A stretch of 64,000 nt of DNA from Bryopsis sp. KO-2023 (taxonomy: Eukaryota > Chlorophyta > Ulvophyceae > Bryopsidales > Bryopsidaceae): positions 5,332,001-5,396,000 of the forward strand of contig BSYQ01000009.1 in NCBI GenBank assembly GCA_030272585.1, given 5' to 3'. The notes under the pieces were generated by a model that searched no databases, had not been told where the DNA came from, and was given only the letters and a program-made list of their open reading frames with translations. Positions 7,047-26,680 of the stretch are shown piece after piece; the first letter of the stretch is position 1, and each line of letters begins with the position of its first letter. The position numbers and the translations under genes were made by a program.

Positions 7047-7078
7047 TGCATTAACATCACAAGCAATCACAAACCTAC

Positions 7079-7675: not shown

Positions 7676-7712
<37 letters not shown>

Positions 7713-7894: not shown

Positions 7895-8359
7895 CAGAGA
7901 TAGGACTTGGGCCAAATTTTTGGTCCGACTCCGGTCCGGTCCGGTTACGGTCGGGTTACGGTCACCGTACTACGGCCGTAACTCCGTACCGTAACCGGAG
8001 TAATATGTTGTTTTTACGGTACGGAACAGGTACGGTATAACTACGGTAGGCCCTAAATCACCGTGAAGTAGCGTGGTTCAGTGCTAAAGCGTTAGGCTGC
8101 AGTCAGTAGGGTCGCGGGTTCGAATCCCCCTGGGTTCCTTTGGAATCGCGGGACCCTGCGGGGGTCACTTTCTACGGTTTACGGTTGTTACGGCCGTTAC
8201 GGTCGTTACGGTCCGGTACGGAGCGGTACGGAGTGGTACGGTGCTACGGTTACGGCCGTAAAAGTACGATTTTCTGACGAAAATTGTACTCCGGTTACGG
8301 TCCGGTTACGGTGGTTACGGTCCGGTTACGGTGACCGTAACCGTAAAGTCCTATCTCTG
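7895..8359 (+). mobile_element. tRNA-carrying hAT-like MITE, copy 1
   Basis: 465-bp non-autonomous element with 14-bp inverted ends (CAGAGATAGGACTT) and a perfect 8-bp target duplication TTCGAGAG (7887-7894 and 8360-8367). Ends beginning CAG(A/G)G and 8-bp duplications are hallmarks of the hAT superfamily. The body is packed with TACGGT/ACCGTA motifs in both orientations and has a tRNA-like core at about 8063-8139. There is no coding capacity. It lies in the leader of chromovirus 2, between the left LTR and gag. Confidence 0.93.
8063..8139 (+). ncRNA. tRNA-like core of MITE copy 1 (possible Pol III promoter)
   Basis: Contains an A-box-like segment (TAGCGTGGTTCAGTG) and an exact B box (GGTTCGAATCC) about 40 bp apart, with a CTGCAGT stretch where an anticodon loop would be (GCA, Cys-like; another copy reads GTA, Tyr-like). 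The T arm pairs at four of five positions. I could not find a matching acceptor stem, so this is tRNA-derived and probably not a working tRNA gene. The same core is present in all five well-preserved copies. Confidence 0.6.
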
Positions 8360-8874
8360 TTCGAGAGTGAGCGATACTCTCGCGTTGTCGCTTACAACGT
8401 CCAGGCGAAGTCGCGAAACAATCGGAGTCCACTAGTGAACTGACTCTCAGATCTATAGATCTGTAGAAGTCGAGAGAAAAACGTCGGAAAAGCGCAGGAA
8501 CAACAGTCGTTCGGGCAGGCGACCGCGTGAGCAGACGTTCGAACACGAACGTGCGACTTTATCCCGGAAAGTTCGGAAACGAGAGCGAGACGACTCTGGT
8601 TCTGACGACCTGACAGAAACCAGACCGTCCACCGCCCCATCCGATTACTAATAGTCATTCTTTCCCGGAGAAAAGTACCGCACCGTCTGATTCCAGGCGG
8701 AATTACTAAATATCGCTGGAAAATCTCACGACGGATAGTAGCTTACACCCAAACACTGTCTGACACCAGAAAGATTCCATCTTTTCCCGCGGAAAAGTTG
8801 GAAACAGTTCTACGGAAAAACCGAGAACTTTCCTGTTCGCTATCACAATTCCCGGCGGATTTCACTCAAATAAC

Positions 8875-10878
8875 ATGTCCGGCCAGACGCCGCCACAACT
8901 ACCACCTATTCCACCTCCTGAGGAGGAAGTGGTGGAGGATAACCAACTTATTCCCGTGGTCTATCCAGATGTGGTGCACCCACCAGCACAGCAAATACAT
9001 GATTTGCAGTGGGACAGACATGTACCCGACCAGGTTGAGGAACCGGACGAAGACTTAGACGACGAACAAGAGTCGGAAGAGTCCGGGGACGAGGAGTATG
9101 ATGAGGATATGGAGGACGTCCCGACAATAGAAGTCACCAACATCCTTCACCATGAACATCAGCACATAAACGTCCACCAGCAGGAGGTGCACGTTCATGG
9201 TGTGGACGAGGGACAACTTAGGGACACAGCTGAGCATGTGTATGCCGCTGTCTCCTCGAATGTGCAAGAGGTCGCACAAAACCTGGAAGGACAAGTTCAC
9301 GAGCAGGTTCAGCGTGCAGAGTCGACCTTAAAAGGCGACCTGAAAGAGGAATATGAGCAGTTCGTGCTCTATGTCAGGAAGGAGGCCCAGAAGCTGGTCA
9401 AACACAATACTGAGTCTATAGAAAGACAACAGAAATTGTTAGACCACCAGCACAAATTGCTGGAACAGAATATAAGGTCCACAGAGCGGATCGACAGAAA
9501 TCTGTTGGGTAAATTCGACAACGAGGCTATTCTGCAAGAGCGACTTGATCGGATGCAGGAATCAGCCCGTACCCAAGCTGAAGCTGTTGATCAAAACAAT
9601 GCTCTCAGGGAGAAACAAATTATGTCTCTGCAAGCCTCTCTGACAAAAGTTGCTGAAGGTATGCGCCTACAGCAGACAACGCTGGATAACCTAGCTCGGG
9701 CTACTGATGAGTCTCGGTGCGAGCAAGTCGACCACCAAGGCCAGCTAGACACACTCTCAGGCCTGGTAAGCCAGAGCTTAAAAGTGTTGCGGGACTTACA
9801 CCAAGCCGAAGAACAACGCAAACAAAGAAGAGCGGAACGAGGCAGTGTGAGTTCTGATGACACGGCAGGAGGACCACCTGAAAGTGGAGGGGGATCTTTC
9901 CTTTCCGGACCAGGTGGAGGTGGGGGTGGTGGATGGCCGTACCACCCAGGTGGAGGTGGAGGTGGCGGAGGTGGAGGTGGGGGTCCTCCAGACCCTAACC
10001 AAGGCTTTGCTGCTCCGCAAGATCGCCACGGACGGATTCCGTCATCCGTTCGTATTCCTTTCCCAAAGGCCTTCTCAGGTGATGGCCAGCGATGGATCAG
10101 AGATTGGCAACTAGAAATGACGGTCTATTGCCAGACTTTGGACATCGATGAGAGCGTATGGTTCAGGCTCTTCCGCAGTAACCTGACCGGAGCTGCTGCT
10201 CAGTGGCGAAACGTCCAGGATCTGCGTACAAGGGAAGGAAAAAGACATCCAATCACAAATTGGATTGAGTTTGTTGAGGAACTGGTCCAAGCATTTGAAC
10301 CCACCAGAATGTCTGATGTAGCCAGGCGCTCCTTACGGAACCTGAAACAGACTGGGTCAGTGCATCAGTACATTGTTGCTTTCCGAGAGCAGGTGCTGAG
10401 GATTCCCAACATGACAGATGAAGAACAATACTTCTTCTTCGTGGACGGGTTAAAGTTCCATATTAAACAACAAACTGTGGCTCAAGTGCCGCACGGCATT
10501 GAGTTGGCGATCCAGACGGCGGCTCGTCTTGATGCTATTGCCTCATCCGGAGGAGGAAACTTTCGTGGCCGCGGACGGTGGCGCGGAGGTAAAGGTCGAG
10601 GCCAAAATAAGAAGCAAAACCAACCCCAGACTGATAAGGCAAACCAGATGGGTGGCCAACAGCAACCTCAGCCAGACCAGGCACAAAACATTGGCCAAGG
10701 TCGAGGTCGAGGACGGGGTGGTGGCCGAGGTCGCGGACGAGGTGGTGGCAGGAATCAAGGACGTGGAGGTGGAGGCGCAAATCCTAAATGCTATATGTGT
10801 GGAAAAACTGGGCATATTCAAAGTAAGTGTCCAGAGGGTGAAAAGTTCAAGAAATGGTTAAACGAAAAAGCCGGATGA
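8875..10878 (+). CDS. Gag of chromovirus 2
   Basis: 667-residue gag-like protein. It has an acidic N-terminal region (about residues 60-85), a long helical, likely coiled-coil region (about 90-310), a glycine-rich linker with runs of Gly (about 330-370), a retrotransposon gag homology region (about 385-550, IRDWQLEMTVYCQ), an RG-rich tail and a C-terminal CCHC knuckle (CYMCGKTGHIQSKC). Its end overlaps the start of pol in another frame, the arrangement used in this family to make gag-pol by ribosomal frameshifting. It looks whole. Confidence 0.9.
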   Translation: MSGQTPPQLPPIPPPEEEVVEDNQLIPVVYPDVVHPPAQQIHDLQWDRHVPDQVEEPDEDLDDEQESEESGDEEYDEDMEDVPTIEVTNILHHEHQHINVHQQEVHVHGVDEGQLRDTAEHVYAAVSSNVQEVAQNLEGQVHEQVQRAESTLKGDLKEEYEQFVLYVRKEAQKLVKHNTESIERQQKLLDHQHKLLEQNIRSTERIDRNLLGKFDNEAILQERLDRMQESARTQAEAVDQNNALREKQIMSLQASLTKVAEGMRLQQTTLDNLARATDESRCEQVDHQGQLDTLSGLVSQSLKVLRDLHQAEEQRKQRRAERGSVSSDDTAGGPPESGGGSFLSGPGGGGGGGWPYHPGGGGGGGGGGGGPPDPNQGFAAPQDRHGRIPSSVRIPFPKAFSGDGQRWIRDWQLEMTVYCQTLDIDESVWFRLFRSNLTGAAAQWRNVQDLRTREGKRHPITNWIEFVEELVQAFEPTRMSDVARRSLRNLKQTGSVHQYIVAFREQVLRIPNMTDEEQYFFFVDGLKFHIKQQTVAQVPHGIELAIQTAARLDAIASSGGGNFRGRGRWRGGKGRGQNKKQNQPQTDKANQMGGQQQPQPDQAQNIGQGRGRGRGGGRGRGRGGGRNQGRGGGGANPKCYMCGKTGHIQSKCPEGEKFKKWLNEKAG

Positions 10879-13800
10879 ACAGAGCCCAGACTCGTTCGGC
10901 GAAACGCAGAAGGGCACGCCGTCACAGATACAAGCAGCGCCAGAAACTTCTTAGAAAAGAAAGGTTAGCTCGAAATGCAGAAGTGAATAAAAGAGCACAA
11001 GGGGAAATAGAAAAGAATGCTACCCAAGGTGCAGAGGGATCGATTATGAGTGCTAAGTTGGAAACTCGATCCAGTAAGTGCAGCACGCTTACTAGGACAA
11101 GTTCGGAATCAAGTTCGGAACCTGTCGACTCTGTTCATGGAGACCTTGGTAGTCCTGAAGGAACTGAGAATTCGGTATCGTTCCCGCCTCAAGGAACGAA
11201 ACGAAATCCGGAAGGAAGGGAACCCGCAAGGGAATCAAATAAGCCTGCCACTCGCTCACCACCAACTGACGAGTCGGCAGCCCCTGTTCAGGGAACAGGT
11301 AGAGGACAAAAAGTGGAGGAAGGTCAGTATTCACCTTCTGAGCGTATGTTACCACTAGGAGGTCCTAACCATTTGAAATTTATGGGATATGAGATCCGAG
11401 CCAGATTAGGAGGAGTACCGATCTCCGCCTATGTTGATTGTGGTGCAACGGAGAACTACATTACCAAGAAACTAATCACGAGACTGAAACTCGAAACAAC
11501 CGAGTGCAAAAAGGGAGTCACTTTGGCAGACGGAACCCTGTGTTCACTTGATCGGCGGTGTGAAGACTTGCAGCTCAGGATGGGTACTTATACCACAACC
11601 CTTTCCGCAGACGTCTTCCCAAACCTTTCATATGACATGATACTAGGGCTTCCTTGGTTGATGCAAACCAATCCCAAACTGGACTTTGCAACAGGCACGC
11701 TCAAAGTACCAGTGGGTGCTGGATGGACAACTGTTCCTATGAAGGAACGACCATCAGACTACTTACAGCACCTAGCACCGGCTATTGATACAGTCTCAGC
11801 GAAGAAGTTATTCTCGCTCGTGAAGAACAGTCCAGAAGTTGATCAGGCATACCTTGTGGTTGTGCGACCAACCACCCCGGATGATATGGCACACCTCATG
11901 CAGTACCCATATCCGGGAATTCCAGAGGAGCGTTTGAACGCTACTGGAACCACACCGGCTCATCTCCAGCCAGATGTGGAAAAGGTAATGCATTCGGGTC
12001 TCGACCCAAGGATCAAGGCTGTCCTCACAAGTTTCAAGGATGTGTTCCCGAAAGACTTACCACCCGGCGTTCCTCCAGTCAGAAAAGGCCACGAATTTAA
12101 GGTGGACCTGGAGGACGAACAAATGACCCCAATCCACTGTCCCTTATACAAACTCTCTCCAGCCGAGCTGGATGAAGTTAGGACACAGGTGGATTACCTC
12201 CTCGAGCAAAGGAAGATCCGACCCTCCGAGAGTCCCTGGGGCGCACCCATACTCTTTGTTCCCAAGAAAGACGGAGGGTTGAGAATGTGTGTGGATTACC
12301 GTTGGATAAACAAGTTCACGGTAAAGAATAGGTATCCACTCCCTCTTCCTGAGGAGTTAATGGACCGTCTCGCCAGAGCGAAGATCTATACGAAGATCGA
12401 CCTCCGCTCAGGCTACTGGCAGTTTCCCGTTCGACCCAAGGATACTCCCAAGACGGCATTCCGGACAAGATACGGACATTTCGAGTTTCTCGTGTGTCCG
12501 TTCGGAATGACCAACTGCCCAGCCCAGTTCCAGACCATGGTTCAGGATTTGCTGGGGGAGTTCCTTGATGAGTTTGTAGTGGTGTTTATCGACGATATTC
12601 TGGTCTTTTCCAACTCGGTGGAAGAGCACGTCGAGCACCTAAAACTGGTCTTTGAACGGTTGCGGAAACATAAGTTGTACGCAAAAGCCAGTAAGTGCGA
12701 AGTAGGGGTAGCAGAGACGGACTACCTGGGGTATCATTTGTCGGAGAAAGGCCTTCAACCGATGCAGGATAAGGTTAAGGCTATTCAACAATGGAAGGAG
12801 TTAACTTCGGTCACTGATGTGCGAAGTTTCCTGGGAATGGTGTCTTACTATCGTAAGTTCATTCCTGAGTTCGCTAGGATTGCGAGTCCCTTGACAGATC
12901 TAACCAAGAAGGATACTGTCTGGGAATGGGGGCTGAACCAACGCAATGCCTACAACGAGCTTAAGGATCGGATTAGCCGCGCACCGATCTTACTCCTTCC
13001 TGATCCGGCTAAGGAGTACACCGTAATAACGGATGCATCTGGGACTGCATATGGAGCGGTTCTTACCCAGGATCATGGGAAAGGTTTGCAACCAATTGCA
13101 TACCTTTCCAGACGATTAAAACCAGCTGAAACGCGATACTCCGCATATGAGCGGGAGCTGGGGGCAATAGCATATGCTTTAGCCCAGTGGCGACACTACC
13201 TTGAGGGATGCGATGGGGGTGTGAACGTGTTGACGGACCACAAACCGATCACCCACTTCATGAACCAGAGCACGTTGTCGCGGACCCAAACCCGGTGGTT
13301 AAACTCAGGGTTTTTCCAATCCATAGGTCCAAAAATCGTCTATATCCATGGAAAAGCCAATGTATTGGCTGATGCGTTATCCCGGAGCCTTCCTGGTCCG
13401 CCAGACCAGCTCAATAACCTCTCCACTTGGGAAGTGGCAGAGAAGGAGGCGTGGAAAGAGGCTTTGAGAAGTGACGAACAACTCAAGCCTGTCTTTGAAA
13501 GGATGGAACGAGGGGTTTCTCCGCAATACAAGCTGGACGACGGGTTCTTGTATTATACCAAGACAGACCCGGGTCCTAGTTTGCTTGTGGTCCCTGCTTC
13601 TTTCCAGAAACGGATTCTGGAAGAGCATCACGACGTTCCCAGTGCAGGTCATGTTGGAGCAGACCGCATGACCGAAGTACTTACCCGCAGTTACTGGTGG
13701 AAAGGCGTTGGGTTAGCTGTAAAGGCATACGTGAAAACGTGCCCAACTTGTCAACTAAACAAATCGGACTTGCAAAGACAGAAAGGTCTTTTGCAGCCGT

Positions 13801-14945
13801 TGCCTATCCCAGACCAGAAATGGGAACAGATCACGACGGACTTGGTTACCGACCTACCGTCTTCCCATGGCTTCACAGCAATCGCTGTCTTTGTAGACCG
13901 ATTGACGAAGTATGCGAGATTCGTACCCTGTAACAAAACTATCACGGCGCCAGAATACGCAAAGCTGTTCGTGGAGAACATATACAAACACTACGGGCTG
14001 CCTAAAATCATAGTTTCGGATCGGGATCCAAGGTTCACAAGTTTGTTCTGGACCTCCCTTTTCAAACTTTTAGGTACCCAGCTCCGGATGAGCACTGCAT
14101 ACCATCCTCAAACGGATGGGCAGTCGGAAGTCACCATCCGGGTGCTGGAGGATTTCCTGCGTCCGTATGTGGAACGGTACCCAGACCGTTGGGTGGATTA
14201 TTTGCCAACCGCGGAATTTGCCGCAAATAATTCACGGAATGTCTCCACAGGCTACGCGCCAGCCCATCTTCTGTATGGCCAGAACATGGGGCAGATAGTT
14301 GTTGCCAGGAAGGGAGTTCGGACGGGCGATGAATCGGAAATGGCGGCTGAGATGGTACGTCGAATGGACGACCAAATGCGAAACGCTAAAGCGAAATACG
14401 CAGAGGCACAGAACCGCATGTGCACCTCAGCAAACAAACGTCGAAGGAAAGTGGATTTTCAGGTTGGCGATGAAGTGCTGGTACAAAGCAAGTATATTCC
14501 CCTTGCTTCACTTCAGAAAATCCCACCGAAAATCCGCCGGCGATTTGTTGTACCTTTCCGGGTGGCTAGCCGAATTGGGGCTGTCGCCTACCGTCTTGAC
14601 CTTCCCGATCACTGGAAAATCCACCCAACTTTCCATGTGTCGAAATTGAAGGCTTACTCTCGGCTTGATGACGATCAGCGAGAGATAGACGCTCCAGAGG
14701 GAGAGCTAGTGGATGGAACCATCGAATTCGAGGTCGAGCGCATCCTCAGAGATCGGGGCACTACTCGCAAGGAGTACCTGATCCTTTGGAAGGGCTACGA
14801 TTTGATGGAATCCACCTGGGAGCCAGAAAGCCACCTGGCCAATGCCCAGGACTTGCTTAAGGAGTACTTAGCCAACAAACCGGAGAATAAACAAGTGACC
14901 CAGTCTAAGAAAAAGACTAGGGCCCAACGCAGAACTCGAACCTAA
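10854..14945 (+). CDS. Pol of chromovirus 2
   Basis: 1363-residue pol. It has a basic N-terminal segment, retropepsin (DCGATENYI), reverse transcriptase (FIDDILVF), RNase H (DASGTAYGAVL), integrase with HHCC finger and catalytic core (SMDL-like block ITTDLVTDLP, later STAYHPQTDGQSE), and a C-terminal chromodomain (FEVERILRDRGTTRKEYLI). Compared with chromovirus 1 the protein is clearly divergent, so the two elements are different families within the chromoviruses. It looks whole. Confidence 0.92.
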   Translation: MVKRKSRMNRAQTRSAKRRRARRHRYKQRQKLLRKERLARNAEVNKRAQGEIEKNATQGAEGSIMSAKLETRSSKCSTLTRTSSESSSEPVDSVHGDLGSPEGTENSVSFPPQGTKRNPEGREPARESNKPATRSPPTDESAAPVQGTGRGQKVEEGQYSPSERMLPLGGPNHLKFMGYEIRARLGGVPISAYVDCGATENYITKKLITRLKLETTECKKGVTLADGTLCSLDRRCEDLQLRMGTYTTTLSADVFPNLSYDMILGLPWLMQTNPKLDFATGTLKVPVGAGWTTVPMKERPSDYLQHLAPAIDTVSAKKLFSLVKNSPEVDQAYLVVVRPTTPDDMAHLMQYPYPGIPEERLNATGTTPAHLQPDVEKVMHSGLDPRIKAVLTSFKDVFPKDLPPGVPPVRKGHEFKVDLEDEQMTPIHCPLYKLSPAELDEVRTQVDYLLEQRKIRPSESPWGAPILFVPKKDGGLRMCVDYRWINKFTVKNRYPLPLPEELMDRLARAKIYTKIDLRSGYWQFPVRPKDTPKTAFRTRYGHFEFLVCPFGMTNCPAQFQTMVQDLLGEFLDEFVVVFIDDILVFSNSVEEHVEHLKLVFERLRKHKLYAKASKCEVGVAETDYLGYHLSEKGLQPMQDKVKAIQQWKELTSVTDVRSFLGMVSYYRKFIPEFARIASPLTDLTKKDTVWEWGLNQRNAYNELKDRISRAPILLLPDPAKEYTVITDASGTAYGAVLTQDHGKGLQPIAYLSRRLKPAETRYSAYERELGAIAYALAQWRHYLEGCDGGVNVLTDHKPITHFMNQSTLSRTQTRWLNSGFFQSIGPKIVYIHGKANVLADALSRSLPGPPDQLNNLSTWEVAEKEAWKEALRSDEQLKPVFERMERGVSPQYKLDDGFLYYTKTDPGPSLLVVPASFQKRILEEHHDVPSAGHVGADRMTEVLTRSYWWKGVGLAVKAYVKTCPTCQLNKSDLQRQKGLLQPLPIPDQKWEQITTDLVTDLPSSHGFTAIAVFVDRLTKYARFVPCNKTITAPEYAKLFVENIYKHYGLPKIIVSDRDPRFTSLFWTSLFKLLGTQLRMSTAYHPQTDGQSEVTIRVLEDFLRPYVERYPDRWVDYLPTAEFAANNSRNVSTGYAPAHLLYGQNMGQIVVARKGVRTGDESEMAAEMVRRMDDQMRNAKAKYAEAQNRMCTSANKRRRKVDFQVGDEVLVQSKYIPLASLQKIPPKIRRRFVVPFRVASRIGAVAYRLDLPDHWKIHPTFHVSKLKAYSRLDDDQREIDAPEGELVDGTIEFEVERILRDRGTTRKEYLILWKGYDLMESTWEPESHLANAQDLLKEYLANKPENKQVTQSKKKTRAQRRTRT

Positions 14946-15652
14946 ACAGGGATCATTACCACTCTGTTCACGCTCGACTTAATACTATCCTTCCAGCTGG
15001 GGGAAAAATATTAAGCCGAGAAAGTCGATTTGGAACGCTATCTAGATGGGATACCAAAAAGACTTAGGAAAAGAGCACCAAGTAGAACTCCCGGAAAAGC
15101 CTGGGGAAAGGTTCCATCTTTTCCTAGGGAAAGTTTCCATCTTTTCCGGCGAACGGGTTGCTATCTTTTCCCGTGACAGAACTGTGGACGGTTCGCAGGA
15201 CGGGCTAGGGGTCAGTTTTCTTTCCGGGGAGGTTTACCTAACGCACAACTCACACGCTCATAGCGACTGACAACAGGTGATGGGGACATTGGATCAAGTG
15301 ATGGGTTAATGTCCGACCTGGAGGTCACGTGATTGCGCCGCAGGTGGAACTGAGTTGACATAAGCAAGTTAGGGTAAAATCAAATAGGCACAAACCCGTG
15401 TGGTGACGGCGACCTCCATAGAGTGTCACGTTACCGAGGTACGTTAGCTAATACGCCTAGCGTATCTTAAAGCGGACTTGCGATCATTTTGCCCTGGTTA
15501 TTCTCGGCGCGCATACAGAAAAGTCGGAGACTAGTCGGAGAACAAAGCGCAGCCAACAAAAGAGAATGCCAAAGCACAGCCCGATCATGTGGCGCAGTGG
15601 TGAAAAAGCGGTTCAGGGAAAGGAGTCGAGTGGAAAACAACTGGGTGGAGGC
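14946..15652 (+). other. Non-coding stretch between pol and MITE copy 2
   Basis: About 700 bp inside chromovirus 2 with no convincing frame. Short CTTTTCC-type repeats occur near 15110-15165. I see no other structure. Confidence 0.5.
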
Positions 15653-16117
15653 CAGAGATAGGACTTGGGCCAAATTTTTGGTCCGACTCCGGTCCGGTCC
15701 GGTTACGGTCGGGTTACGGTCACCGTACTACGACCGTAACTCCGTACCGTAACCGGAGTAATATGTTGTTTTTACGGTACGGAACAGGTACGGTATAACT
15801 ACGGTAGGCCCTAAATCACCGTGAAGTAGCGTGGTTCAGTGCTAAAGCGTTAGGCTGCAGTCAGTAGGGTCGCGGGTTCGAATCCCCCTGGGTTCCTTTG
15901 GAATCGCGGGACCCTGCGGGGGTCACTTTCTACGGTTTACGGTTGTTACGGCCGTTACGGTCGTTACGGTCCGGTACGGAGCGGTACGGAGTGGTACGGT
16001 GCTACGGTTACGGCCGTAAAAGTACGATTTTCTGACGAAAATTGTACTCCGGTTACGGTCCGGTTACGGTGGTTACGGTCCGGTTACGGTGACCGTAACC
16101 GTAAAGTCCTATCTCTG
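15653..16117 (+). mobile_element. tRNA-carrying hAT-like MITE, copy 2
   Basis: 465 bp with the same 14-bp inverted ends as copy 1 and a perfect 8-bp duplication GTGGAGGC (15645-15652 and 16118-16125). The body is nearly identical to copy 1, so both moved recently. The tRNA-like core lies at about 15821-15897. It is inserted just upstream of the third frame of chromovirus 2. Confidence 0.94.
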
Positions 16118-16245
16118 GTGGAGGCGGAAACGCAAAAGGCAGTGGCGGCGAGAAAAGCGGAAAAGAACAGAGTGGAACTCTCGCCGACGCTCGCCCACCC
16201 AGAGGGGAACCCAGACCACTTATCACACCACCTCAGGCGAAAATC

Positions 16246-17814
16246 ATGAAAACTCTCCCACCTCCTTCGGTGCTTTCGAAACTTCGGAACTTCGAAACAT
16301 CGCTGCTGAAAGGAACCTCAAAGATCGTGATCCGCCCACCGACAGAGTTGCCGGAAAAACTGCCGGAAAAACCTAGTTCCAGAACAGGAAAAACACTCGA
16401 CCGGGACGCCGACCCAGCTACTCTCCAAGCTAGGTGTCAACGGTTACAAGACGATGTGTTGGAACTCCGTGCAGAACGCGACGCACAACGCGCGCGGGCG
16501 GATCAGGCAGAGAAGCACTTGAGAAAGTTCGAGGGTGCAGCACAACGACTCTGCGATCAAGTAACGAAGCTTGAACACGATCTGGAAATCGCCCGGCAGG
16601 CGAGAGGAACCGCTGAGCAGGAGGTGAAACAGCTTCAAAAGGAGCTCGATTCTGCGAACCAGACGCAGAAAAAGCTGAAAGCGCAGCTGACGAAACAGCA
16701 GCCGCACCTGACGTCCACAGACGAAAGGTCGGCCTGGCAAACGGCTGTGTACTCGTCTGAGGCACAGTCCGGGTTGATGAGCCGGTTGCTCCACAGCGTT
16801 CCCGCGCGTCTTGGGGACTACGTGGAAAACCTTTGTCGGGCGACGATGGACGATATCATCGAACAGGGTGCTGGAGCTGCTGCTGCGATCAGAGACGGAG
16901 AGGAGCCTGTCTACTACGGCAAAGGGAACGTTCCGGTTAACCACCGGCTAGCCGGGTATGACTATACGCAGGTGGACAGAACGCTGGAGAGAATCAGAAG
17001 TCGTGCACCGGGGCACTTTGAAATTCCCGACGTCGCCGACGATATGATCTCAGAGCCACAACCAAGGAGAATCCGCGACCTGACCGGGGGACAGACCGGT
17101 GGAAAGACCGACGAAAAGTCGGCGCCCAAGAAAAGGAAGGAGAGAGAGGAAGAGGAGGCGCTCGCCGACATGTCAAAGAGATTCAAGGACAGGCGTGGGG
17201 AAAAGCCGCCGATCTGTTTGTGGTGCTATTCGCCGCCGGCGCTGGCGGATAGCTACGTGATCACCACATGCACGAGCCACACGGTGTGCCGAACCCACTG
17301 GAATCTCATGATAATCCTCGTGCGCTTATACGGGGTGTGGCAGGAACAGCGAATAGATCCGCCACAGGTTCAGCTGAAGGACCTTCATTTGGACATGCGC
17401 GAGCCAGACTTCCAGCCACTCCTTCAGGCTCCACCCACGACCCCGACTCTAACCGAGTGCTATCAGTGCTTGAGAAGGGACATGGGCTTTCCGAAAGGCC
17501 TTGCCCTGAAGCGCTTGGGTCCGTTGGTGAAAAAGTGGGCAGAGGAGTATGAGAGGCAGGAAAAAGAAAGGACACCCGAACCAGAAACAAAAGGAGAACA
17601 AGACCCAAAACAGGACGAAGGAAAAAGTCCTTCCGTGTCAAGCAGGAGTCCATCCTCGGAGCCCTCGTCTTTGGGACCTCTTCCTCCACCTTTGGATGAG
17701 GACTTCCCTCCTTTGGATCCGGATGTGGACGAGCCTCCGATCGACTTGGTGGCAGAACCAGTCGATGAACCAGCTGAGGAACCAGCTGAGGCACCAGCCA
17801 CGGGTGCTGACTGA
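16246..17814 (+). CDS. Extra 3' ORF of chromovirus 2, unknown function
   Basis: 522-residue frame between pol and the 3' LTR, where most chromoviruses have none. Residues about 55-155 form a strong heptad-rich coiled coil. A basic/acidic patch (KKRKEREEEE) looks like a nuclear signal. A Cys/His cluster (CLWCY...CTSHTVCRTHW) near residues 325-350 could bind zinc. The tail is Pro/Glu/Ser rich. No signal peptide or clear transmembrane span, so I would not call it an envelope. I do not recognise a family; it may be a captured host segment or an element-specific accessory protein. Confidence 0.6.
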   Translation: MKTLPPPSVLSKLRNFETSLLKGTSKIVIRPPTELPEKLPEKPSSRTGKTLDRDADPATLQARCQRLQDDVLELRAERDAQRARADQAEKHLRKFEGAAQRLCDQVTKLEHDLEIARQARGTAEQEVKQLQKELDSANQTQKKLKAQLTKQQPHLTSTDERSAWQTAVYSSEAQSGLMSRLLHSVPARLGDYVENLCRATMDDIIEQGAGAAAAIRDGEEPVYYGKGNVPVNHRLAGYDYTQVDRTLERIRSRAPGHFEIPDVADDMISEPQPRRIRDLTGGQTGGKTDEKSAPKKRKEREEEEALADMSKRFKDRRGEKPPICLWCYSPPALADSYVITTCTSHTVCRTHWNLMIILVRLYGVWQEQRIDPPQVQLKDLHLDMREPDFQPLLQAPPTTPTLTECYQCLRRDMGFPKGLALKRLGPLVKKWAEEYERQEKERTPEPETKGEQDPKQDEGKSPSVSSRSPSSEPSSLGPLPPPLDEDFPPLDPDVDEPPIDLVAEPVDEPAEEPAEAPATGAD

Positions 17815-18086
17815 GATGGCTTCTGGAGTGACAACGAAAAGCAGACCAAGCCGGAGACCAAGCTACCGTCCAAGCCAGAGACCAAGCCTCAAGACAGAAC
17901 GGGGTTTTTCTGTGGGGTTGATCATGGGTTTGGTTTGGGATTTTTCATGGGTTTGTTTGTCATTTAGTTGGGGTTTTTGTTGTGGGTTTGTTTGGGGTTT
18001 CTTTTTCTTCTAGGTCGCTCTTTTTCTTTCTTTCTTTCCTAGGTTGTGACGGGTGTGGACACCCTCTCGTGGGGGGGGGGACAAAT

Positions 18087-18190
18087 TGATAGTAGAACTC
18101 GGGTTTTGGGGTTATTGTGTAGTACAATGGGATGTACGACAGGGTTTATAGGGCAGGGGGCCCTCCTGTAAAAATTATCTTTCCCAGTGA

Positions 18191-18226
<36 letters not shown>

Positions 18227-18256
18227 TTGTGTCTCGGGGCCTGGGCGCCCCTATCA
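18087..18256 (+). repeat. 3' LTR of chromovirus 2
   Basis: 170-bp LTR matching 7572-7743, followed directly by the duplicated target TCGCC. Confidence 0.93.
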
Positions 18257-18291
18257 TCGCCCATCAACTGAACATCCGACGTCGCCGACAT
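18257..18291 (-). pseudogene. Zinc-finger gene, N-terminal end of exon 1
   Basis: Short minus-strand open segment starting at an ATG (18291-18289) that runs to the LTR junction. It belongs with 7394-7571 on the other side of chromovirus 2: the strand and reading frame agree across the duplicated TCGCC. Only about ten codons lie here, so the start codon choice is tentative. Confidence 0.4.
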
Positions 18292-18420
18292 ACTGAACAC
18301 ACTCCGGAAAAAAACGAAAACACACCGCGAGACAGTAGAAAACCAAAGGAGAAACTAGCGATGGGACAGTGGCTAGGTTATAAGGGAGGTTGCGTACGAC
18401 AGGACAACTTCCCACCGTAA

Positions 18421-18754
18421 CTCCTCTTTACGGTGGAACGGACTCCGGTTTGCGGTTTACGGTGTTACGGTCACGTGATTACGGCGCTACGGTGGATGAT
18501 TTACGGTGCTACGGTTGTTGATTTACGGTGAGTTTACGGCATGCTCCGGTGTACGGTGATAACCGAACCGTAAATCCGTCATTTCATGCTCCGGACCGCC
18601 GTAATGACGCCGTAGTACTACGGATAACATTTACGGTGGTCCGGTTCCGAGCACGAAAACCACTCCGGTCCGGACCGGAGTGACCGTAACCGTAAGTGAC
18701 CGGAGTGAGGTTACGGTACGGTTTACGGTACCGTAACCGTAAAGTCCTACCACT
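18421..18754. mobile_element. Divergent or truncated relative of the TACGGT MITE family
   Basis: Roughly 330 bp dense in TACGGT/ACCGTA words, ending at 18754 in AAGTCCTACCACTG, a variant of the MITE end. Its right half matches the left half of MITE copy 6 in inverted orientation. No tRNA-like core and no matching left end or target duplication was found, so it is probably a partial copy or an older subfamily. Confidence 0.6.
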
Positions 18755-18783
18755 GGGCGGAACCAACCACTCGGAACCTGCGA

Positions 18784-20053
18784 ATGGCCGATCCCCGTCG
18801 GTCGGAGGTGCAACTGTTGCGGCTCGCTCAGTACGGCAGCGAACTGGTTCACCAACGGCTGGCGCATGATCGTCGACTTCGAGGCGTGCCTGCACACCCT
18901 AGGGTGTGGAAAGCATGGGAAAAGTGGATCTCTCAGCTCGCGCTAGCCCGACCTGTGACGCTGAGGACGGCGGCCCCCATAGACGTCCTGAGCTTTATGG
19001 AAATATCGTGGTTGCCTGAACTCCACGCCCACAGCCGAACTCTCACAAGTGCTGGTCTCAGGATGCCTCACCATAATTCCGTAAAACAGGCGCTAGCGCA
19101 ACTGCGGGCTGAATATGCCCGCCAGGGTCGACGGAGAAAATATGACACGATCACCCCCTCAGGGAATCCTCTGCGAAGTCTGTTAGTAACTGACTGGCTC
19201 CGGGCTTACACCAATGGATCTGTCCACCAAGGAGTGAGCGAAAAAGCGGCTATACCTATGACCCAAGCCCACTACTTGGAGCTCATGCGCGCAGTAGAAG
19301 ACGCATACATATCGGCGACTCGAAAAGGGGACACTGGCCTAGGCCAAATACATGTGGTGAATGCGGCGTTGTTCGCCTTTCTATGGACGACTTGTTCGCG
19401 TTCCAATCCGCAATATAGCGGGTATCTTCGCGGCAGCGTGGAGGTGGCGCCCCTATTTGCCACTAGAATAGCCCGGGCCCAAACCTTGTATTGCCACGGC
19501 CGCGTTCTAACCGAAGAAGTGGCCGTGACACCTAGATTTGTCAAACGGGCGACAGGAGCCCGCAGCCATAGAGCGATAATGCCTACCCAGGGAGGATTCC
19601 CCACCCTAGGGTGTCCTGTGTGGAACCTACAGCGCCTCCTGGCCTTGGTGCCTGGCACCGCGGAATCCCCTCTGTTTCCCCGAGGGGACTTTAGAAGGGG
19701 TCGGCTAACTGAGAACCCTGCTAACGCGAGCTCCGTGACACGCCACCTGCGTATCTATAGTCGGGCCACCTCCATCGACGAGGCGTACACGGCGTACAGC
19801 TTTAAACGAGGGAGCCTGCAACATCAGTATGATCAAGGGGCGTCCGTGGCGGACCTCCAGGCTTTATCAGGAGTGCGATCGCGTGTTATATACCGCTACC
19901 TTGACCCTGGAAGGCACCTAGGTGCCTACACCCAGGAAGAAACCAAGCCTGATCCCACTGATGATATGATGCTGCCTGTGGGCCTTCCCCCTGAAGTATT
20001 CCTGGGGCCAGAACCTGGGGAGACGACGGATCTGTTTGAGCGTGACCTGAGGG
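18784..20053 (+). CDS. Tyrosine recombinase of the YR retroelement
   Basis: About 423 residues of recombinase-like sequence. An N-terminal helical, SAM-like DNA-binding part is followed by a catalytic half ending in the conserved block YSFKRGSLQHQYDQG and SGVRSRVIYRYLD, which fits the R/K...G...Y signature of DIRS-type recombinases with the nucleophile tyrosine near the end. It would insert circular DNA copies by site-specific recombination. MITE copy 4 lies at the 3' end of this frame, so the last residues read from the frame are MITE-derived. Confidence 0.75.
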
Positions 20054-20518
20054 CAGAGATAGGACTTTACGGTTACGGTCACCGTAACCGGACCGTAACC
20101 ACCGTAACCGGACCGTAACCGGAGTACAATTTTCGTCAGAAAATCGTACTTTTACGGCCGTAACCGTAGCACCGTACCACTCCGTACCGCTCCGTACCGG
20201 ACCGTAACGACCGTAACGGCCGTAACAACCGTAAACCGTAGAAAGTGACCCCCGCAGGGTCCCGCGATTCCAAAGGAACCCAGGGGGATTCGAACCCGCG
20301 ACCCTACTGACTGCAGCCTAACGCTTTAGCACTGAACCACGCTACTTCACGATGATTTAGGGCCTACCGTAGTTATACCGTACCTGTTCCGTACCGTAAA
20401 AACAACATATTACTCCGGTTACGGTACGGAGTTACGGCCGTAGTACGGTGACCGTAACCCGACCGTAACCGGACCGGACCGGAGTCGGACCAAAAATTTG
20501 GCCCAAGTCCTATCTCTG
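20054..20518 (-). mobile_element. tRNA-carrying hAT-like MITE, copy 4
   Basis: 465 bp, inverted relative to copies 1 and 2, with perfect 8-bp duplication CCTGAGGG (20046-20053 and 20519-20526). tRNA-like core at about 20274-20350 on the minus strand with exact B box. Inserted at the 3' end of the recombinase frame. Confidence 0.94.
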
Positions 20519-20526
20519 CCTGAGGG

Positions 20527-21056: not shown

Positions 21057-21064
21057 CTCCCAAT

Positions 21065-21528
21065 CAGTGATAGGACTTTACGGTTACGGTCACCGTAACC
21101 GTACCGTAACGCCGTAACCGGACCGTAACCGGAGTACAATTTTCGTCGGAAAATCGTACTTTTACGGCCGTAACCGTAGCTCCGTACCGCTCCGTACCGC
21201 TCCGTACCGGACCGTAATGACCGTAACGGCCGTACCAACCGTAAACCGTAGAAAGTGACCCCCGCAGGGTCCCGCGATTCCAAAAGAACCCAGGGGGATT
21301 CGAACCTGCGACCCTACAGACTGCAACCTAACGCTTTAACACTGAACCACACTACTTCACGATGATTTAGGGCCTGCCGTAGCTATACCGTACCTGTTCC
21401 GTACCGTAAAAACAGCATATTACTCCGGTTACGGTACGGAGTTACGGCCGTAGTACGGTGACCGTAACCCGACCGTAACCGGACCGGACCGGAGCCGGAC
21501 CAAAAAATCGGCCCAAGTCCTATCTCTG
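21065..21528 (-). mobile_element. tRNA-carrying hAT-like MITE, copy 5
   Basis: 464 bp with perfect 8-bp duplication CTCCCAAT (21057-21064 and 21529-21536). One end is CAGTGATAGG and the other matches the family end. More diverged than copies 1, 2 and 4, but the tRNA-like core (about 21284-21360, minus) and B box persist. It lies at the 3' end of the RT-RNase H frame. Confidence 0.93.
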
Positions 21529-21536
21529 CTCCCAAT

Positions 21537-23769
21537 AACGACCGAAAAAACAAGGCGCCTTGGCGGTGTTGGCGGACGCAAAGAAATCCCAAGCCAAACT
21601 CTCCCGCCTCAGATGAGCCCACTTGAGCGAGGTGATTTTCCAGCACGCAAAATCTACCGCCACTGGAGAGAATTCCCAATCTACCGAGTGCTCCAGACGA
21701 CTTAAGTCGTCCGCGCGCTTCTGCCAGGGGTCAATCCTAGGAGCCCACAAAAATTTTACATCGACTTGGTGCTGCCAGGCCGCCACATAGATCTCCCGCG
21801 TCATAGGGTGATTGGCTAAGGTGCCCTTCCCTTTCGACAGAGCATAATACGCTGCTTGCGAATCAGTCTGATAAACGACCGTCCCCCCTTTTAACGAGTC
21901 GCCTAGGCGAGCGAGAACATGAGTCACAGCGAACAGTGCCGCAAACATCTCACGCCCCGTAGAGTCCCGTTCTGGTCCTTTCCATCTCGCTGGCAGGAAA
22001 CCCTGGACTGGTTCAGCGAGCTCGCCAAACGGGGTGAAAGCTCCCCATGCATCGTCCGAGGCGTCGCCGACCACCACCACTGTGGGCCCCGGTCGCACCC
22101 ATTCCATGCCATTCATGGCCCGCACCTGGGTGCGCCAAAAACCCACCTCCGCCTGAACCTCGGACAGCGCTCCGCAGTCCTCGTCCCATGACTTCTTTCC
22201 CCGCAACCAGAAATGTAGAGTCCGCGCTAGCGCTTTAGCGGGCAAAATTGCCTGTCGGAAGGACACCAACAGACCGGCCAGTTGGGCGATCTCACGTGGT
22301 GTGGCGGTGTCGCGTTCCATAAGAGCGTCACACTTCCCCAAAAAATAATCCACCTTGTCCTCGGGCACTTCAAAGCGTCCTGTCTCCGTGTTAACCGTCA
22401 TACCTAGGTAGACCACCTGCTGGCGCACCTCCCAGTCATTTTTATCCAGGCCAAAACAAAAACCAAGGGCCGTCCCAGCTGTGGCCCAACACATAGCATC
22501 CCGTCGAGCGGATTCCTGGGAATCGCCTCCGCCCAGGCGGTCGTCGATTAAAAACGACATGTCAGCCCCAGCGGCCCTCAAAGGACGATACGCGACCTCC
22601 ATCAATCTGGTAAAGGCGGCACAGGCGGACGAGAGGCCGAACATGAGGCTTCGCAAAACGTAAACCTGAGAACGCCAACGGACTGCTAAAAAAGGCCAAT
22701 CAGCCTCCCGCACACCTAGGTGGTGGTAACCCGACTTGAGATCCGCTGTGTGCAACCACCACCCCTGCCGGACGAGCCCTGCCACAGTCTCTAGAGACTC
22801 GTACTTCACCGGCTGGTACTCCACAAAGGCATTGACGTATTGGAAATCCATGACGAGCCGTTTCTTTCCTTTACGATTGGTCACCACCGCTAGCGGCGTG
22901 ACGACTTTCACATCGATGTCCATATGTTCTGACCATGGAAAGATCGCTCCCGATTTTACCATTTTTTCTAACGCTCCATCCACGAAAACGCCCTCCGCCA
23001 CCGTGGACTTACGGTTTGAGAACCAAATGCGGTGTGGTCGGTCGCCCTGGAGCATCCCTGCGCGCTCCTTTTCGGTGGACAGGGGAAGAGCTTGCCTGAG
23101 CATTGCCCGCACTCTCGCCATCTTTCGTTTATAGAAAGGATGTTCTTTTTGGCTAGCCACATGTGGCGATGTCCAGGGAACGTCGTAACCTCCCCGAATC
23201 CATCCCAAGACCTCCGCCTTTCTTGCAAAGGGGCCCTCAGCGTGAAGGTAACGAACCCACTGATCATACTGCGCATGAATAGCTCCAGCACAGTAATTCT
23301 GATCGTCCAACAGGAACTCTTGCACCCTAGGGCGAATCGGAGTAGCGTAGGCGGAGTCCAACTCCGGAGACGAGTGCCTGTACCGAGGCAACAGGTCGAG
23401 AGCGCGAGTCATCAAAACATCAGGTGCCACGGGGTACGTAGGCCTAGGCACGGGGGGAACTACAGTGACACCTCGACATGATGAGAGCAGATACTGCCCC
23501 GACACCAGTGGATCCCCGTCCAACTGTTCCCAAAGGGCTTCTGATGCCAAAGAGTGGTCGAGGTCCAGGGGCTCCTCGACCTCTGAAGGACCTGGGGCTG
23601 CCTGCACCACCGTTTGTTGAGAATGGCCAATCGTTAGACAAGGGTTGACGGCTAGCCGTGCCCAACTAATGCAGGACAGGATCCAAACACCGAATGAAAC
23701 GAGGGCTGTAGGATGACAGCCCGAAGTGATGGTAGTCACGGTTGAGCGACTCCCTAAAGAGGGCGCCAC
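21537..23769 (-). CDS. RT-RNase H protein of the YR retroelement
   Basis: About 744 residues on the minus strand. The reverse transcriptase core includes LVMDFQYVNAF, HTADLKSGYHHL and the DIRS-type catalytic block FLIDDRLGG. An RNase H region follows with VGDASDDAWGAF and TDSQAAYYAL. The order RT then RNase H without an integrase is that of DIRS-like elements. The protein would copy element RNA into DNA for recombinase-mediated insertion. Confidence 0.85.
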
Positions 23770-23879
23770 CGCCTAACCCAGCCCCCCTTGCCCGACGGGC
23801 ACGGAGAACATCAGTGGTCAAGTGTAAACTGACCAGATGCACGGCACACCCCGACGACCGGGGTGGGAGGACTTAAGAC

Positions 23880-24013: not shown

Positions 24014-24239
24014 CCTGTAGACATGTCCACTAACTACCAAGGAACCTAAGTTCCTACCCACTGCAAACAACCCCCCTCTAGTCTGTGTAACCCAGAACTG
24101 TTCGATTCCCACCACTGCCCCTGGAACCTAAGTTCACCATCAAAGGAAAGCCCATTCATTTAAATGACTGATACTCGAAAACCCAAACCTGGCCGAAACT
24201 GGCACCGTTCTCCCTCCCCCACAACCCGAACAAACAAAC

Positions 24240-26680
24240 CTAGGTCGTTGCTGCCATGACCTGAAAAGACGCCTCCTGCGCTAGCGTAGTTCCTGCCCTC
24301 CGAGTTTCGTCGCCCCAGTTATCCATAAAAAACTGGAGCAACGAATGGAAACTGATGGCGGTGGTCGAACCCTGCTGCACGGTTTCAAGGAAGGTGGCGT
24401 CCCTCCAGCTCCTAGGAATAGAGTGGTCGCCCAAGTACCGGAAAGCCACGTGCCGACGCCAATTCTTGGCCCTAGGGGCGATTGTTTTTATCCCCAGGGA
24501 TGAGTTAGGCCGAGCCTGCGACGTGTGCTCGCAGACCCCCCCCCGCTGACGCGCCACCTTGGGAAACGCCACCGCCAGCAACCAGAGATAGATATGCGCC
24601 CCGAGGAGCCCCGCTCGTTTCAAGTCCAAATCCGGAGTGAACCATTCCCGAATAACCGCCCCTAGGGGCTCCTCCGCCATGTCCCACAAGTGGGCCCAAT
24701 TGCCCGTCTCCGCTCCCTCGTTCGTAACGCGTCCTCGGACGAACCCAATGAACTGGGTCAGCGCGCCCACCAGATCCCCCAGGGAATGTATGTCCAGCCA
24801 CTCCCATGAAGACTCCGCCGCTGTTGGCCCCGCTGCTGTCGGCCCTAGGGCTGGGAACTTCTGGCGCAGCGCCTGGTCCGAAGGCTGCCCAGCAACAAGC
24901 CCATCGAACGCTCGCCCGCGAAGAGCCAGGAACAAAGCCTGGGAAACCCTAGGGAATAAGTCGTCGGAGAGGGCGAGGACCACGACGGGCACCGGAAAAC
25001 CCGCGTGCGGCAGCAAACGCTCCCCTGGGGGTATGAAAACAAAAGGCACTGGTGCACCCACGTTCTCCTCCGCCAGGACGTCAATCCCGCCCAGAAACAA
25101 CGCCCCGTTCCTAGGAACGGGGGGATCTCTAGAGAAAAAACAAGCCGGGGCGAGCAAAACGACCTTCCCTCCGATATCGGTAGCGATCAGAGATAGGACT
25201 TTCCGGTTACGGTACCGTAAACCGTACCGTAACCCCACTCCGGTCACTTACGGTTACGGTAGTTACGGTCCGGACCGGAGTGGTTTTCGTGCTCGGAACC
25301 GGACCACCGTACCACTCCGTACTGCTCCGGTACCGGACCGTACCGACCGTAACCACCGTACCAACCGTAAACCGTAAATAGTAACCCCCGCAGGGTCCCG
25401 AGAACCCAAAGGAACCCAAGGGGATTCGAACCCACGACCTTACAGACTACAGCCTAACGCTTTAGCACTGAACCACACTACTTCACGATGATTTAGGGGC
25501 TACCGTAGCTATACCGTACCTGTTCCGTACCGTAAAAACAACATATTACTCCGGTTACGGTACGGAGTTACGGCCGTAATACGGAACCGTAAACCGATCG
25601 TAACCGGACCGGACCGTAGCCGGACCAAAAATTTGGCCCAAGTCCTATCTCTGGTAGCGATATCTACCGCGAACCATTGCTCGTGGGTGTAAGGGGCAGA
25701 AACCGCCCTAGGGCGTTCCTGCATCCGGCACGAAACCTCCATCACCGGAATGGAAAAATAGTCCATCCGGGGGGGAAAGGTCACACTATTGAACGAGCGT
25801 GCCAGTAACCAATAGTCTGGCCGGGTGACGCCCTTGGGGGATCGCTCCCTGTGCGGCTGAAGGTCCCTAAGGGAAAAATTACCCCGATCCCGGAACGGAC
25901 TCCCAGGGGCTGGGTTGTGTCGGTGGGGCTGGCCCCTGTCTCGACGAAAATGACCCTGAGAAACGAAACAATGCACCACAGACACACTTCAGCCATGGGC
26001 AAGCTAGCCTGCAAATTGCCCTCTACCTCTCACAGCATTCACACAAATACATGCACCCCCCCAAAGAAATTTTGACAAGCCCAGAAACATTAATCAGCAG
26101 TGGGAACCTGAAAGCCAGCAAAACAACCCCATTCTGCAAGCCACCCTGAAAGGTCACTGTTCCCTGCAAACAAAGCCCTAGGGGTTTCCACGGCCTACCG
26201 CAGGAATAAACCCACAGCCTTGGAGTGGATCCTGCGGCTGAGGCGCGCGATGGATATAAGGGCTCCTGCCGGAAGCCACAGCCCACCGGGCGCCTACCGC
26301 GTCCGGGGTGCGATCCGTAGGGTCCCTAGGGACGTTCGAACGCGCAGGGATCCGACGAAACGTCCTGCCCTGGGACAACGGAGAGGGGCATGGGGATACC
26401 GGAGGAGTCACTGGTCGCGGAGAAACCGAACGAACCTGGCGCGACACGCCTGGAGGAGACAGAGGGGCCCGCAAAGGCGGGGGAACGCCCTCACTTTGAA
26501 CGGCCGAGCCTGGCCGCAACAAGCCTGGAGGATAGAGGGGAGCCCGCCTAGGCGGGGGAATATTGACGGTTGCCGCGCGCGACGGAACAGGAGAGGCCCT
26601 GCGGGCTCCCTCGCTCACAGCCCAGGCCATCGTGGACTCCGGAGTTGGTAACATGCCCGACAGTTCCGCCGCGGACAAAG
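24240..26680 (-). CDS. Gag-like region of the YR retroelement, interrupted by MITE copy 6
   Basis: Minus-strand coding-like region upstream of the RT. The distal part (24240-25179) has a helical region with WAHLWDMAEEPLG and IREWFTPDLDL; the proximal part (25654 to about 26680) is Pro/Arg/Ser rich. No zinc knuckle was recognised. Assignment to gag is by position and composition. The region is broken by the MITE insertion. Confidence 0.5.
25188..25653 (-). mobile_element. tRNA-carrying hAT-like MITE, copy 6
   Basis: 466 bp with perfect 8-bp duplication GTAGCGAT (25180-25187 and 25654-25661). Its left half is a subfamily variant shared with the partial element at 18421-18754. The tRNA-like core (about 25410-25486, minus) reads GTA at the anticodon position. 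Inserted in the gag-like region of the YR element. Confidence 0.93.

What the first reader, a model, noticed from the sequence alone, without database searches (positions are those of the whole stretch)
7895..25653. A hAT-like MITE family that carries a tRNA-like gene in every intact copy
Five elements (7895-8359, 15653-16117, 20054-20518, 21065-21528, 25188-25653) are 464-466 bp, have the inverted ends CAGAGATAGGACTT and each has its own perfect 8-bp target duplication (TTCGAGAG, GTGGAGGC, CCTGAGGG, CTCCCAAT, GTAGCGAT). Ends and duplication length fit hAT. All keep a tRNA-like core with the B box GGTTCGAATCC at the same offset, 168 bp from one end. A cut-and-paste MITE with a conserved internal Pol III promoter mixes the features of MITEs and SINEs; I know of no standard family like it.
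Basis: partly seen in the sequence, partly recalled or inferred. Interest (0 to 1): 0.88.

Follow-up and report, generated by a model that had tools for sequence, protein, structure and literature searches.

The report
hAT MITEs with tRNA-type promoters
Short cut-and-paste "jumping DNA" in what is probably a green alga carries a tRNA-derived promoter, and similar promoter modules sit in at least three hAT families with different ends, mixing two kinds of mobile element that are normally told apart by these very features.

Summary
In detail: five 464-466 bp elements with the stated ends and five perfect 8-bp duplications. Genome-wide (91 Mb, probably a green alga) the end occurs 790 times; the 40 best-scoring copies are identical. 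They are hAT MITEs: a ~5 kb hAT element (PF05699) has the same ends and duplications. The MITE's middle, not found in the one autonomous copy read, has TATA, A box and B box at tRNA spacing but is no tRNA: no gene call, no special fold, no fixed terminator. 45 of 46 copies read carry it; a 330-bp copy does not. The B box is a conserved island in a variable region, though other parts of the element are as conserved.

Larger result: this is not one family. Two more hAT-type MITE families with other ends and arms (CATACTATGGATC; CAGAGCTGGGCAGTA) carry divergent pairs of such cassettes, and one cassette type occurs within both kinds of ends. Of 93 cassette tails checked, 91 lie in such elements and two do by layout; none looked like a free SINE. 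A fourth family lacks it.

Best reading: a Pol III promoter captured and kept by non-autonomous hAT elements, possibly because TFIIIC/TFIIIB binding keeps them accessible. Pol III use is inferred, not shown.

The parts
7895..8359 (+). MITE1 copy, 465 bp, TSD TTCGAGAG; TATA 8034-8043, A box 8074-8084, B box 8117-8127, GC hairpin 8152-8166
15653..16117 (+). MITE1 copy, 465 bp, TSD GTGGAGGC; TATA 15792-15801, A box 15832-15842, B box 15875-15885
20054..20518 (-). MITE1 copy, 465 bp, TSD CCTGAGGG; TATA 20370-20379, A box 20329-20339, B box 20286-20296
21065..21528 (-). MITE1 copy, 464 bp, about 95% identical to the first three, one mismatch in one TIR, TSD CTCCCAAT; A box 21339-21349, B box 21296-21306
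25188..25653 (-). MITE1 copy of the diverged 466-bp subfamily (about 86% identical), TSD GTAGCGAT; A box 25465-25475, B box 25422-25432
18257..18755 (-). End (about 0.5 kb, TIR with 2 mismatches) of an autonomous hAT partner of the same family, 99.4% identical to positions 7-499 of the 4,990-bp copy on C5
6932..7571 (-). Further piece of an autonomous hAT partner (positions 495-1140 of the C5 copy, 98.8%); overlaps the piece at 18257-18755 by 5 bp, as if one hAT copy had been split by a later ~10.7-kb insertion. A hAT domain match at C9:5329264-5329506 lies about 2.5 kb left of the window
   Evidence: the single-copy reading is inference

Best explanation
These are non-autonomous hAT transposons. 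Each family is moved in trans by a hAT transposase that recognises its ends: family 1 by a ~5-kb autonomous hAT with identical TIRs (shown: shared ends and duplications; inferred: mobilisation), families 2 and 3 probably by other hAT groups whose transposase genes lie at near-constant distances from the same TIRs. The MITEs hold a tRNA-derived type-2 Pol III promoter module (TATA, A box, B box, 3' GC hairpin), once in family 1 and as a divergent pair in families 2 and 3; partly related modules sit inside unrelated ends, so the module has been passed between families or captured more than once (modules and different ends shown; route inferred). The promoter rather than an RNA seems to be what is kept: the B box is conserved against its surroundings while tRNA shape, RNA fold and terminator are not. 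Most likely mechanism (inferred): TFIIIC/TFIIIB binding keeps these deletion derivatives, which lack a transposase promoter, nucleosome-poor, unsilenced and accessible to transposase, so copies with a working B box amplify. My split: hAT MITE 0.95; tRNA-derived Pol III promoter 0.8; promoter retained because it aids amplification 0.35 (the last two lowered).
For: hAT: exact TIR in the fetched stretch in 24 of 28 loci of one PF05699 group, 1 more with two mismatches, 3 without. I looked for both ends in 14 autonomous copies and found them in 10; of these 7 have perfect 8-bp duplications, 1 has one mismatch, 2 have none (flanks compared by eye). PF05699 E=5.8e-19. The MITE ends match that element over 105 bp (97%) and 48 bp (94%), 124 bp (95%) in the diverged copy; there is no match between about 106 and 275 and no B box within 2 mismatches in its 4,990 bp. 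Copies: 42 of 46 perfect duplications, 3 with one mismatch, 1 none. Promoter: A-to-B spacing 43 bp, TATA 38 bp upstream of the A box. B box 1 of 11 sites variable against 22 of 32 between the boxes among 24 distinct sequences, Fisher p=0.001; on a tree, 1 change in 11 B-box sites, 25 in 32 between the boxes, 20 in the next 24 sites. 95 of 100 listed copies have an exact B box; the five exceptions are four variants, none seen more than twice, while inter-box variants recur in many copies (by eye). Module in other ends. Family 1 versus 3 tail score 59, best of 2,000 shuffles 26; family 1 versus 2 score 35, best of 1,000 shuffles 27. No free copies seen.
Against: No expression, ChIP or chromatin data exist here; Pol III use is inferred from boxes. 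The B box is not uniquely conserved: 40 of 426 11-bp windows outside the TIRs have as few changes on the tree (mostly positions 35-145), and the B box does not differ from positions 106-165 (11 of 60 variable, p=0.68) or 15-105 (20 of 91, p=0.45); downstream of 166 it is 6 of 275 windows, itself included. The A box is not conserved (4 of 11 variable, p=0.08 against the inter-box region; 9 changes in 11 sites). Most copies are very young. A cassette-free hAT-like family (0 of 5 hits with a B box) and cassette-free TIR1 (330 bp) and TIR2 (515 bp) copies with perfect duplications show that the cassette is not required for transposition. Thirteen of 45 copies have no T4 run after the B box. Family 3 versus 2: the best match is the 10-base B-box string, and 84 of 1,000 shuffles score as well, so one origin for all cassettes is not shown. 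L110 and two of four family 3 elements have no duplication.
Confidence: 0.4

Rival explanations
1. Passive cargo: each MITE founder happened to pick up a tRNA pseudogene or SINE piece (for example as filler DNA in gap repair), and the boxes look conserved mainly because copies are recent. The promoter has no effect on mobility.
For: Recent burst: the 40 best-scoring copies are identical. MITEs often carry non-homologous internal DNA (stated in PMC2374699, passage seen). Cassette-free copies and a cassette-free family exist. Other stretches of the element are as conserved as the B box.
Against: At least three families with different ends carry such cassettes; all share GTTCGAATCC; the B box stands out from its immediate surroundings; B-box variants are rare and not amplified.
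Confidence: 0.4
2. A functional small RNA: the cassette is a Pol III gene whose transcript (roughly 110-120 nt, tRNA-like head plus 3' hairpin) acts in trans, for example as a decoy of silencing or a helper of transposition.
For: Families 1 and 3 share a conserved tail after the B box that ends in the hairpin and a T-rich stretch; TATA and A/B boxes would give a defined start.
Against: Predicted transcripts fold little better than shuffles (z -0.82, -1.16, -0.70; a real tRNA of this genome -1.37, so the test has little power); 13 of 45 copies have no T4 run after the B box; family 2's tail is shorter and different.
Confidence: 0.13
3. They are SINEs (copied through RNA) that only look like MITEs.
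For: tRNA-derived head with A and B boxes; high copy number of a short element.
Against: Inverted ends, constant 8-bp duplications and a hAT partner with the same ends; elements end exactly at the TIR with no tail; no free cassette among 93 tail places checked.
Confidence: 0.02
4. The boxes are a coincidence and bind nothing.
For: No gene finder recognises the region; the A box is not conserved.
Against: Both boxes near tRNA spacing plus TATA in three families, and a B box that is conserved within a variable region.
Confidence: 0.05

Closest known systems
hAT-superfamily MITEs (non-autonomous deletion derivatives of hAT transposons)
   Same: 8-bp duplications with T at position 2 in 25 of 40 and A at position 7 in 24 of 40 distinct sites (the hAT consensus nTnnnnAn is recalled), CAG-type ends, short subterminal repeats, an autonomous partner with the same ends
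   Different: Carry a tRNA-derived Pol III-type promoter module, single or as a divergent pair, in at least three families of one genome
tRNA-derived SINEs
   Same: tRNA-derived head with A and B boxes and, in families 1 and 3, a conserved non-tRNA tail
   Different: Inverted ends and fixed 8-bp duplications; no 3' tail; no free copies seen
Plant nuclear tRNA genes (TATA and CAA upstream, A/B boxes inside, poly(T) behind; PMC11700998, passages seen)
   Same: TATA upstream and A/B boxes at tRNA spacing
   Different: Not called as tRNA by ARAGORN or Rfam; terminator not kept
DINE-1 of Drosophila (PMC2374699, passages seen)
   Same: Abundant short element argued over as SINE or MITE
   Different: There the lack of Pol III sites and tRNA similarity was used to argue against SINE; here both sets of features occur in one element

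Membership tests
hAT superfamily | 8-bp target site duplications | tested here: met
   42 of 46 MITE1 copies perfect, 3 with one mismatch, 1 none; autonomous partner 7 of 10 perfect, 1 near, 2 none
hAT superfamily | Transposase with hAT C-terminal dimerisation domain in an element with the same TIRs | tested here: met
   PF05699 in a 350-aa ORF; same TIR exact in 24 of 28 loci
hAT superfamily | Transposition actually catalysed by that transposase | not testable with these tools
   needs an assay
MITE | Short, non-coding, many near-identical copies with TIR and duplication, ends derived from an autonomous element | tested here: met
tRNA-derived SINE | A and B boxes in a tRNA-derived head | tested here: met
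   similarity to tRNA genes is weak and gives no clear parent
tRNA-derived SINE | 3' tail, variable-length duplications, dispersal as a free unit | tested here: not met
   fixed 8-bp duplications at the TIRs; of 93 cassette-tail places checked 91 lie in TIR-type elements by a nearby end or by sequence and 2 by layout only
tRNA gene | Cloverleaf recognised by ARAGORN or the Rfam tRNA model | tested here: not met
Pol III gene, type 2 promoter | A box and B box at tRNA spacing with upstream TATA | tested here: met
Pol III gene, type 2 promoter | Both boxes under constraint | tested here: inconclusive
   B box conserved against its surroundings but not against the whole element; A box not conserved
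Pol III gene, type 2 promoter | T4+ terminator at a fixed place | tested here: not met
   13 of 45 copies have no T4 run after the B box within the element; 26 have one 153 bp behind it
Pol III gene, type 2 promoter | Transcription by Pol III | not testable with these tools
   no RNA or ChIP data

The most novel reading that the evidence does not exclude
A tRNA-derived Pol III promoter cassette behaves as a transferable module of hAT MITEs: it is acquired by, and traded between, MITE families with different ends, is found only in the non-autonomous elements, and is maintained by selection because TFIIIC/TFIIIB binding replaces the lost Pol II promoter in keeping the element open to transposase.
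Probability: 0.3. Interest if true: 0.88.

Novelty: new variant of a known kind. Interest (0 to 1): 0.7.

Why it matters
Pol III boxes and TIRs with fixed duplications are used as opposite diagnostics for SINEs and MITEs; here they coexist in abundant elements of at least three families, so repeat annotation that relies on either may misfile them. If the promoter aids amplification, it would help to explain how deletion derivatives without a promoter of their own escape silencing, with natural controls in the same genome (cassette-free copies of the same families and a cassette-free family).

Tried and rejected
SINE origin by retroposition: rejected (fixed 8-bp duplications, inverted ends, no free copies seen). 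True tRNA gene: rejected. Origin of the core inside the autonomous hAT: not found in the one 4,990-bp copy. Autonomous family 2 elements carrying the cassette: none of the listed tail places falls in C1:3379249-3386098 or C1:4624656-4631990 (one search lists 0-1 mismatch, one search lists exact ones); the sequence itself was not read. Parent tRNA: best similarity to Leu, Ile, Arg, Asn or Ser genes among the 13 tRNA genes at hand, no clear parent. Viral and bacterial collections: 24 and 14 loci with the 17-base tail, 0 of 38 places with a B box within 80 bp upstream, so taken as chance. Transposase homologues: one unnamed protein, 49%. Papers: ten searches (two of them returned no paper), of which I saw listings with abstract starts, plus passages of PMC11700998, PMC2374699 and PMC6947457; no listed title describes such an element, which is weak evidence of absence because most subscription journals are not held. 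Rfam microRNA hits in the arms are below gathering scores and I take them to reflect palindromic repeats. Mistakes of mine, not used: the line for the GC hairpin had wrong coordinates (it is at 258-272); 'TATA to A 37' for family 1 came from a piece that lacked the TATA (38); the table holds four false family 2 rows (not at the B box) and left out family 3 loci L101-L103 for a reason I did not find (one search shows them; L103 has the exact string on one strand only).
Full report
WHAT IS THERE. Three are 99.6-99.8% identical, one about 95%, one about 86%.

WHERE IT IS. The window is C9:5332001-5396000 of an unnamed assembly of 91,088,769 bases in 28 contigs. I take the host to be a green alga; this is an inference.

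COPY NUMBER AND AGE. The exact 14-mer occurs 790 times (393+397) against 0 for the reversed control. A search with the 7895 copy had 554 candidates; the tool scored the best 40, and all 40 are identical over 465 bp. In 46 distinct copies read in full, 42 duplications are perfect, 3 have one mismatch and 1 none (of the 47 rows printed I dropped one, a false pairing of a solo end). Two pairs of copies share a duplication, as segmental duplicates would. Distinct duplications show T at position 2 in 25 of 40 and A at position 7 in 24 of 40, as in the recalled hAT consensus.

THE PARTNER. A PF05699 search gave 150 matches, of 185 candidates. Of 28 fetched loci of one group (27 with a 350-aa frame, one with 284), 24 have the exact TIR in the stretch, 1 has it with two mismatches and 3 have none. 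One copy on C5 spans 4,990 bp between exact TIRs; the MITE matches it over positions 1-105 (97%) and 419-465 (94%), the diverged copy over 124 bp at that end (95%); other matches are short arm repeats, and there is none between about 106 and 275. I looked for both ends in 14 partner copies; 10 had them, and of these 7 have perfect 8-bp duplications, 1 has one mismatch, 2 none (flanks compared by eye). Pieces of such a partner lie in the window at 18257-18755 and 6932-7571. So family 1 is a hAT MITE, and its middle looks like an acquisition, unless the copy that I read has lost it.

THE CORE. A box TGGTTCAGTGC at 180, B box GGTTCGAATCC at 223, 43 bp apart, GGTATAACTA with its TATA 38 bp upstream of the A box, GC hairpin at 258-272. 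ARAGORN and Rfam do not call a tRNA there; at E<=10 the only hit of the tRNA clan is 13 bases of the tmRNA model. Predicted transcripts of three families fold little better than shuffles (z -0.82, -1.16, -0.70; a real tRNA of this genome gave -1.37). After the B box 13 of 45 copies have no T4 run in the element.

CONSTRAINT. Among 24 distinct sequences, variable sites are 1 of 11 in the B box, 4 of 11 in the A box, 22 of 32 between them, 0 of 14 in the left TIR; Fisher p=0.001 for B versus between, 0.08 for A versus between. Counted on a tree, there is 1 change in the 11 B-box sites, 9 in the 11 A-box sites, 25 in 32 between, 20 in the 24 sites behind the B box. But the B box is not unique: 40 of 426 11-bp windows outside the TIRs have as few changes, mostly at positions 35-145, and it does not differ from positions 15-105 (p=0.45) or 106-165 (p=0.68); downstream of 166 only 6 of 275 windows reach it, itself included. 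Genome-wide, 299 places match anchors around the B box; of the 100 listed 95 have the exact B box, and the five others are four variants. Inter-box variants recur in many listed copies (346 places, 100 listed, by eye). The anchors favour young copies.

NOT ONE FAMILY. In L033 a MITE1 sits inside another element (MITE duplication CTTCTAAT), which has ends CATACTATGGATC and the duplication CTTGTCAC. This family 2 (TIR2 followed by NGA, 380 places, control 0) is 999-1,025 bp with CGATC-repeat arms and two divergent cassettes, each with TATATA or TATATAAT, a tRNA-type A box and GGTTCGAATCC; 4 of 4 read have perfect 8-bp duplications, and a 515-bp copy without cassette has one too. Family 3 (TIR3, 80 places, control 0) is 956-969 bp with ACGTT-repeat arms and a 410-bp palindrome of two cassettes; 2 of 4 read have perfect duplications, the other two have mismatched ends and none. 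A 1,088-bp element at C1:6464-7551 has family 2 ends (one with one mismatch) and arms, the perfect duplication ACTGGCAG, and a family 3-type cassette pair; a second such element, L110, has a degenerate end and no duplication. hAT transposase matches lie 2.8-3.1 kb from TIR2 in 13 of 16 cases that I chose (the three of the 784-aa group do not) and 0.8-1.1 kb from TIR3 in 5 of 6.

RELATIONSHIP OF CASSETTES. Families 1 and 3 share the tail after the B box (score 59; best of 2,000 shuffles 26). Families 1 and 2 share the stretch from A box to B box (35; best of 1,000 shuffles 27). For families 3 and 2 the best match is the 10-base string GTTCGAATCC, and 84 of 1,000 shuffles score as well. The cassettes are thus related in part; a single origin is not shown.

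NO FREE COPIES SEEN. The family 1/3 tail has 462 places with up to 2 mismatches. I checked the 43 with 0-1 mismatch on C1 and on C2 up to 2.43 Mb against the lists of exact ends: 28 lie near TIR1, 7 near TIR3, 2 near TIR2, 4 form inverted pairs 289 bp apart without an exact end (one pair read as L106, family 3; one pair by layout only), and 2 stood alone but proved to be family 3 sequence when read (L111 judged by eye, L150 by BLAST). The family 2 hairpin has 314 places with up to 2 mismatches (control 1); the 50 exact ones on C1, C2 and C3 up to 3.18 Mb all lie within 1.1 kb of TIR2. Thus none of 93 looked like a free SINE; most were placed by distance to an end, not read. As a control, a fourth hAT-like family in the fetched DNA (335-383 bp) has no B box in 5 of 5 hits (overlapping loci may repeat a copy), so the cassette is common but not universal. 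The fetched DNA is biased towards cassette families.

HOW IT PROBABLY WORKS. Shown: ends, duplications, partner, modules in different ends, and a B box conserved against its surroundings. Inferred: mobilisation by the partner, Pol III factor binding, and the benefit. The pattern 'B box kept, tRNA shape and terminator not kept, not found in the autonomous copy' fits a DNA-level role: TFIIIC/TFIIIB binding excludes nucleosomes and can block silencing (recalled for tRNA genes in yeast and animals), which would matter most for elements that have lost their Pol II promoter. The passive-cargo rival is about as likely, because copies are young and the B box is not the only conserved part.

NOVELTY. 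Ten full-text searches listed no paper with this in its title; the held library is partial. The DINE-1 paper (passages) used the lack of Pol III sites and tRNA-like structure to argue against SINE, which shows how the two feature sets are treated as alternatives. I rate it a new variant of a known kind: hAT MITEs, but with a recurrent Pol III-type promoter module.

Noticed in passing
L001, L002 (C5 about 3.11-3.12 Mb): A stretch of about one 3.46-kb unit (L001) holds 11 tRNA genes and a MITE1; L002, 3,459 bp away, has a MITE1 with the same duplication CTCACGAG, and tRNA matches recur at that spacing, so MITE copies are probably also multiplied with a tandem tRNA array.
   Followed up: partly
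window 7572-18256 (approximately): A roughly 10.7-kb stretch with Ty3/gypsy-like open frames (by eye) separates two pieces of an autonomous hAT copy that overlap by 5 bp, as an LTR retrotransposon insertion with a 5-bp duplication would.
   Followed up: partly
window 18784-20118 (+) and 21520-23769 (-): Open frames that by eye look like a tyrosine recombinase (no Pfam hit) and a reverse transcriptase (RVT_1, 28.8 bits, just under the cut-off), possibly a DIRS-like neighbourhood.
   Followed up: partly
L002:148-528, L003:1122-1456, L034:1022-1404: A fourth hAT-like MITE family with ends CAG[A/T]CATGGGCTG and 8-bp duplications, without the Pol III cassette.
   Followed up: partly
L031:1501-1830 (C1:5122693-5123022): A 330-bp TIR1 element without the core, made of the two hAT ends plus repeats that resemble positions 2318-2477 of the autonomous copy: a natural cassette-free control.
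   Followed up: partly
G000, many contigs: Several hAT groups with long open frames (784, 788, 839, 350 aa and more) have many matches of equal score, suggesting that hAT activity in this genome is recent.
   Followed up: no
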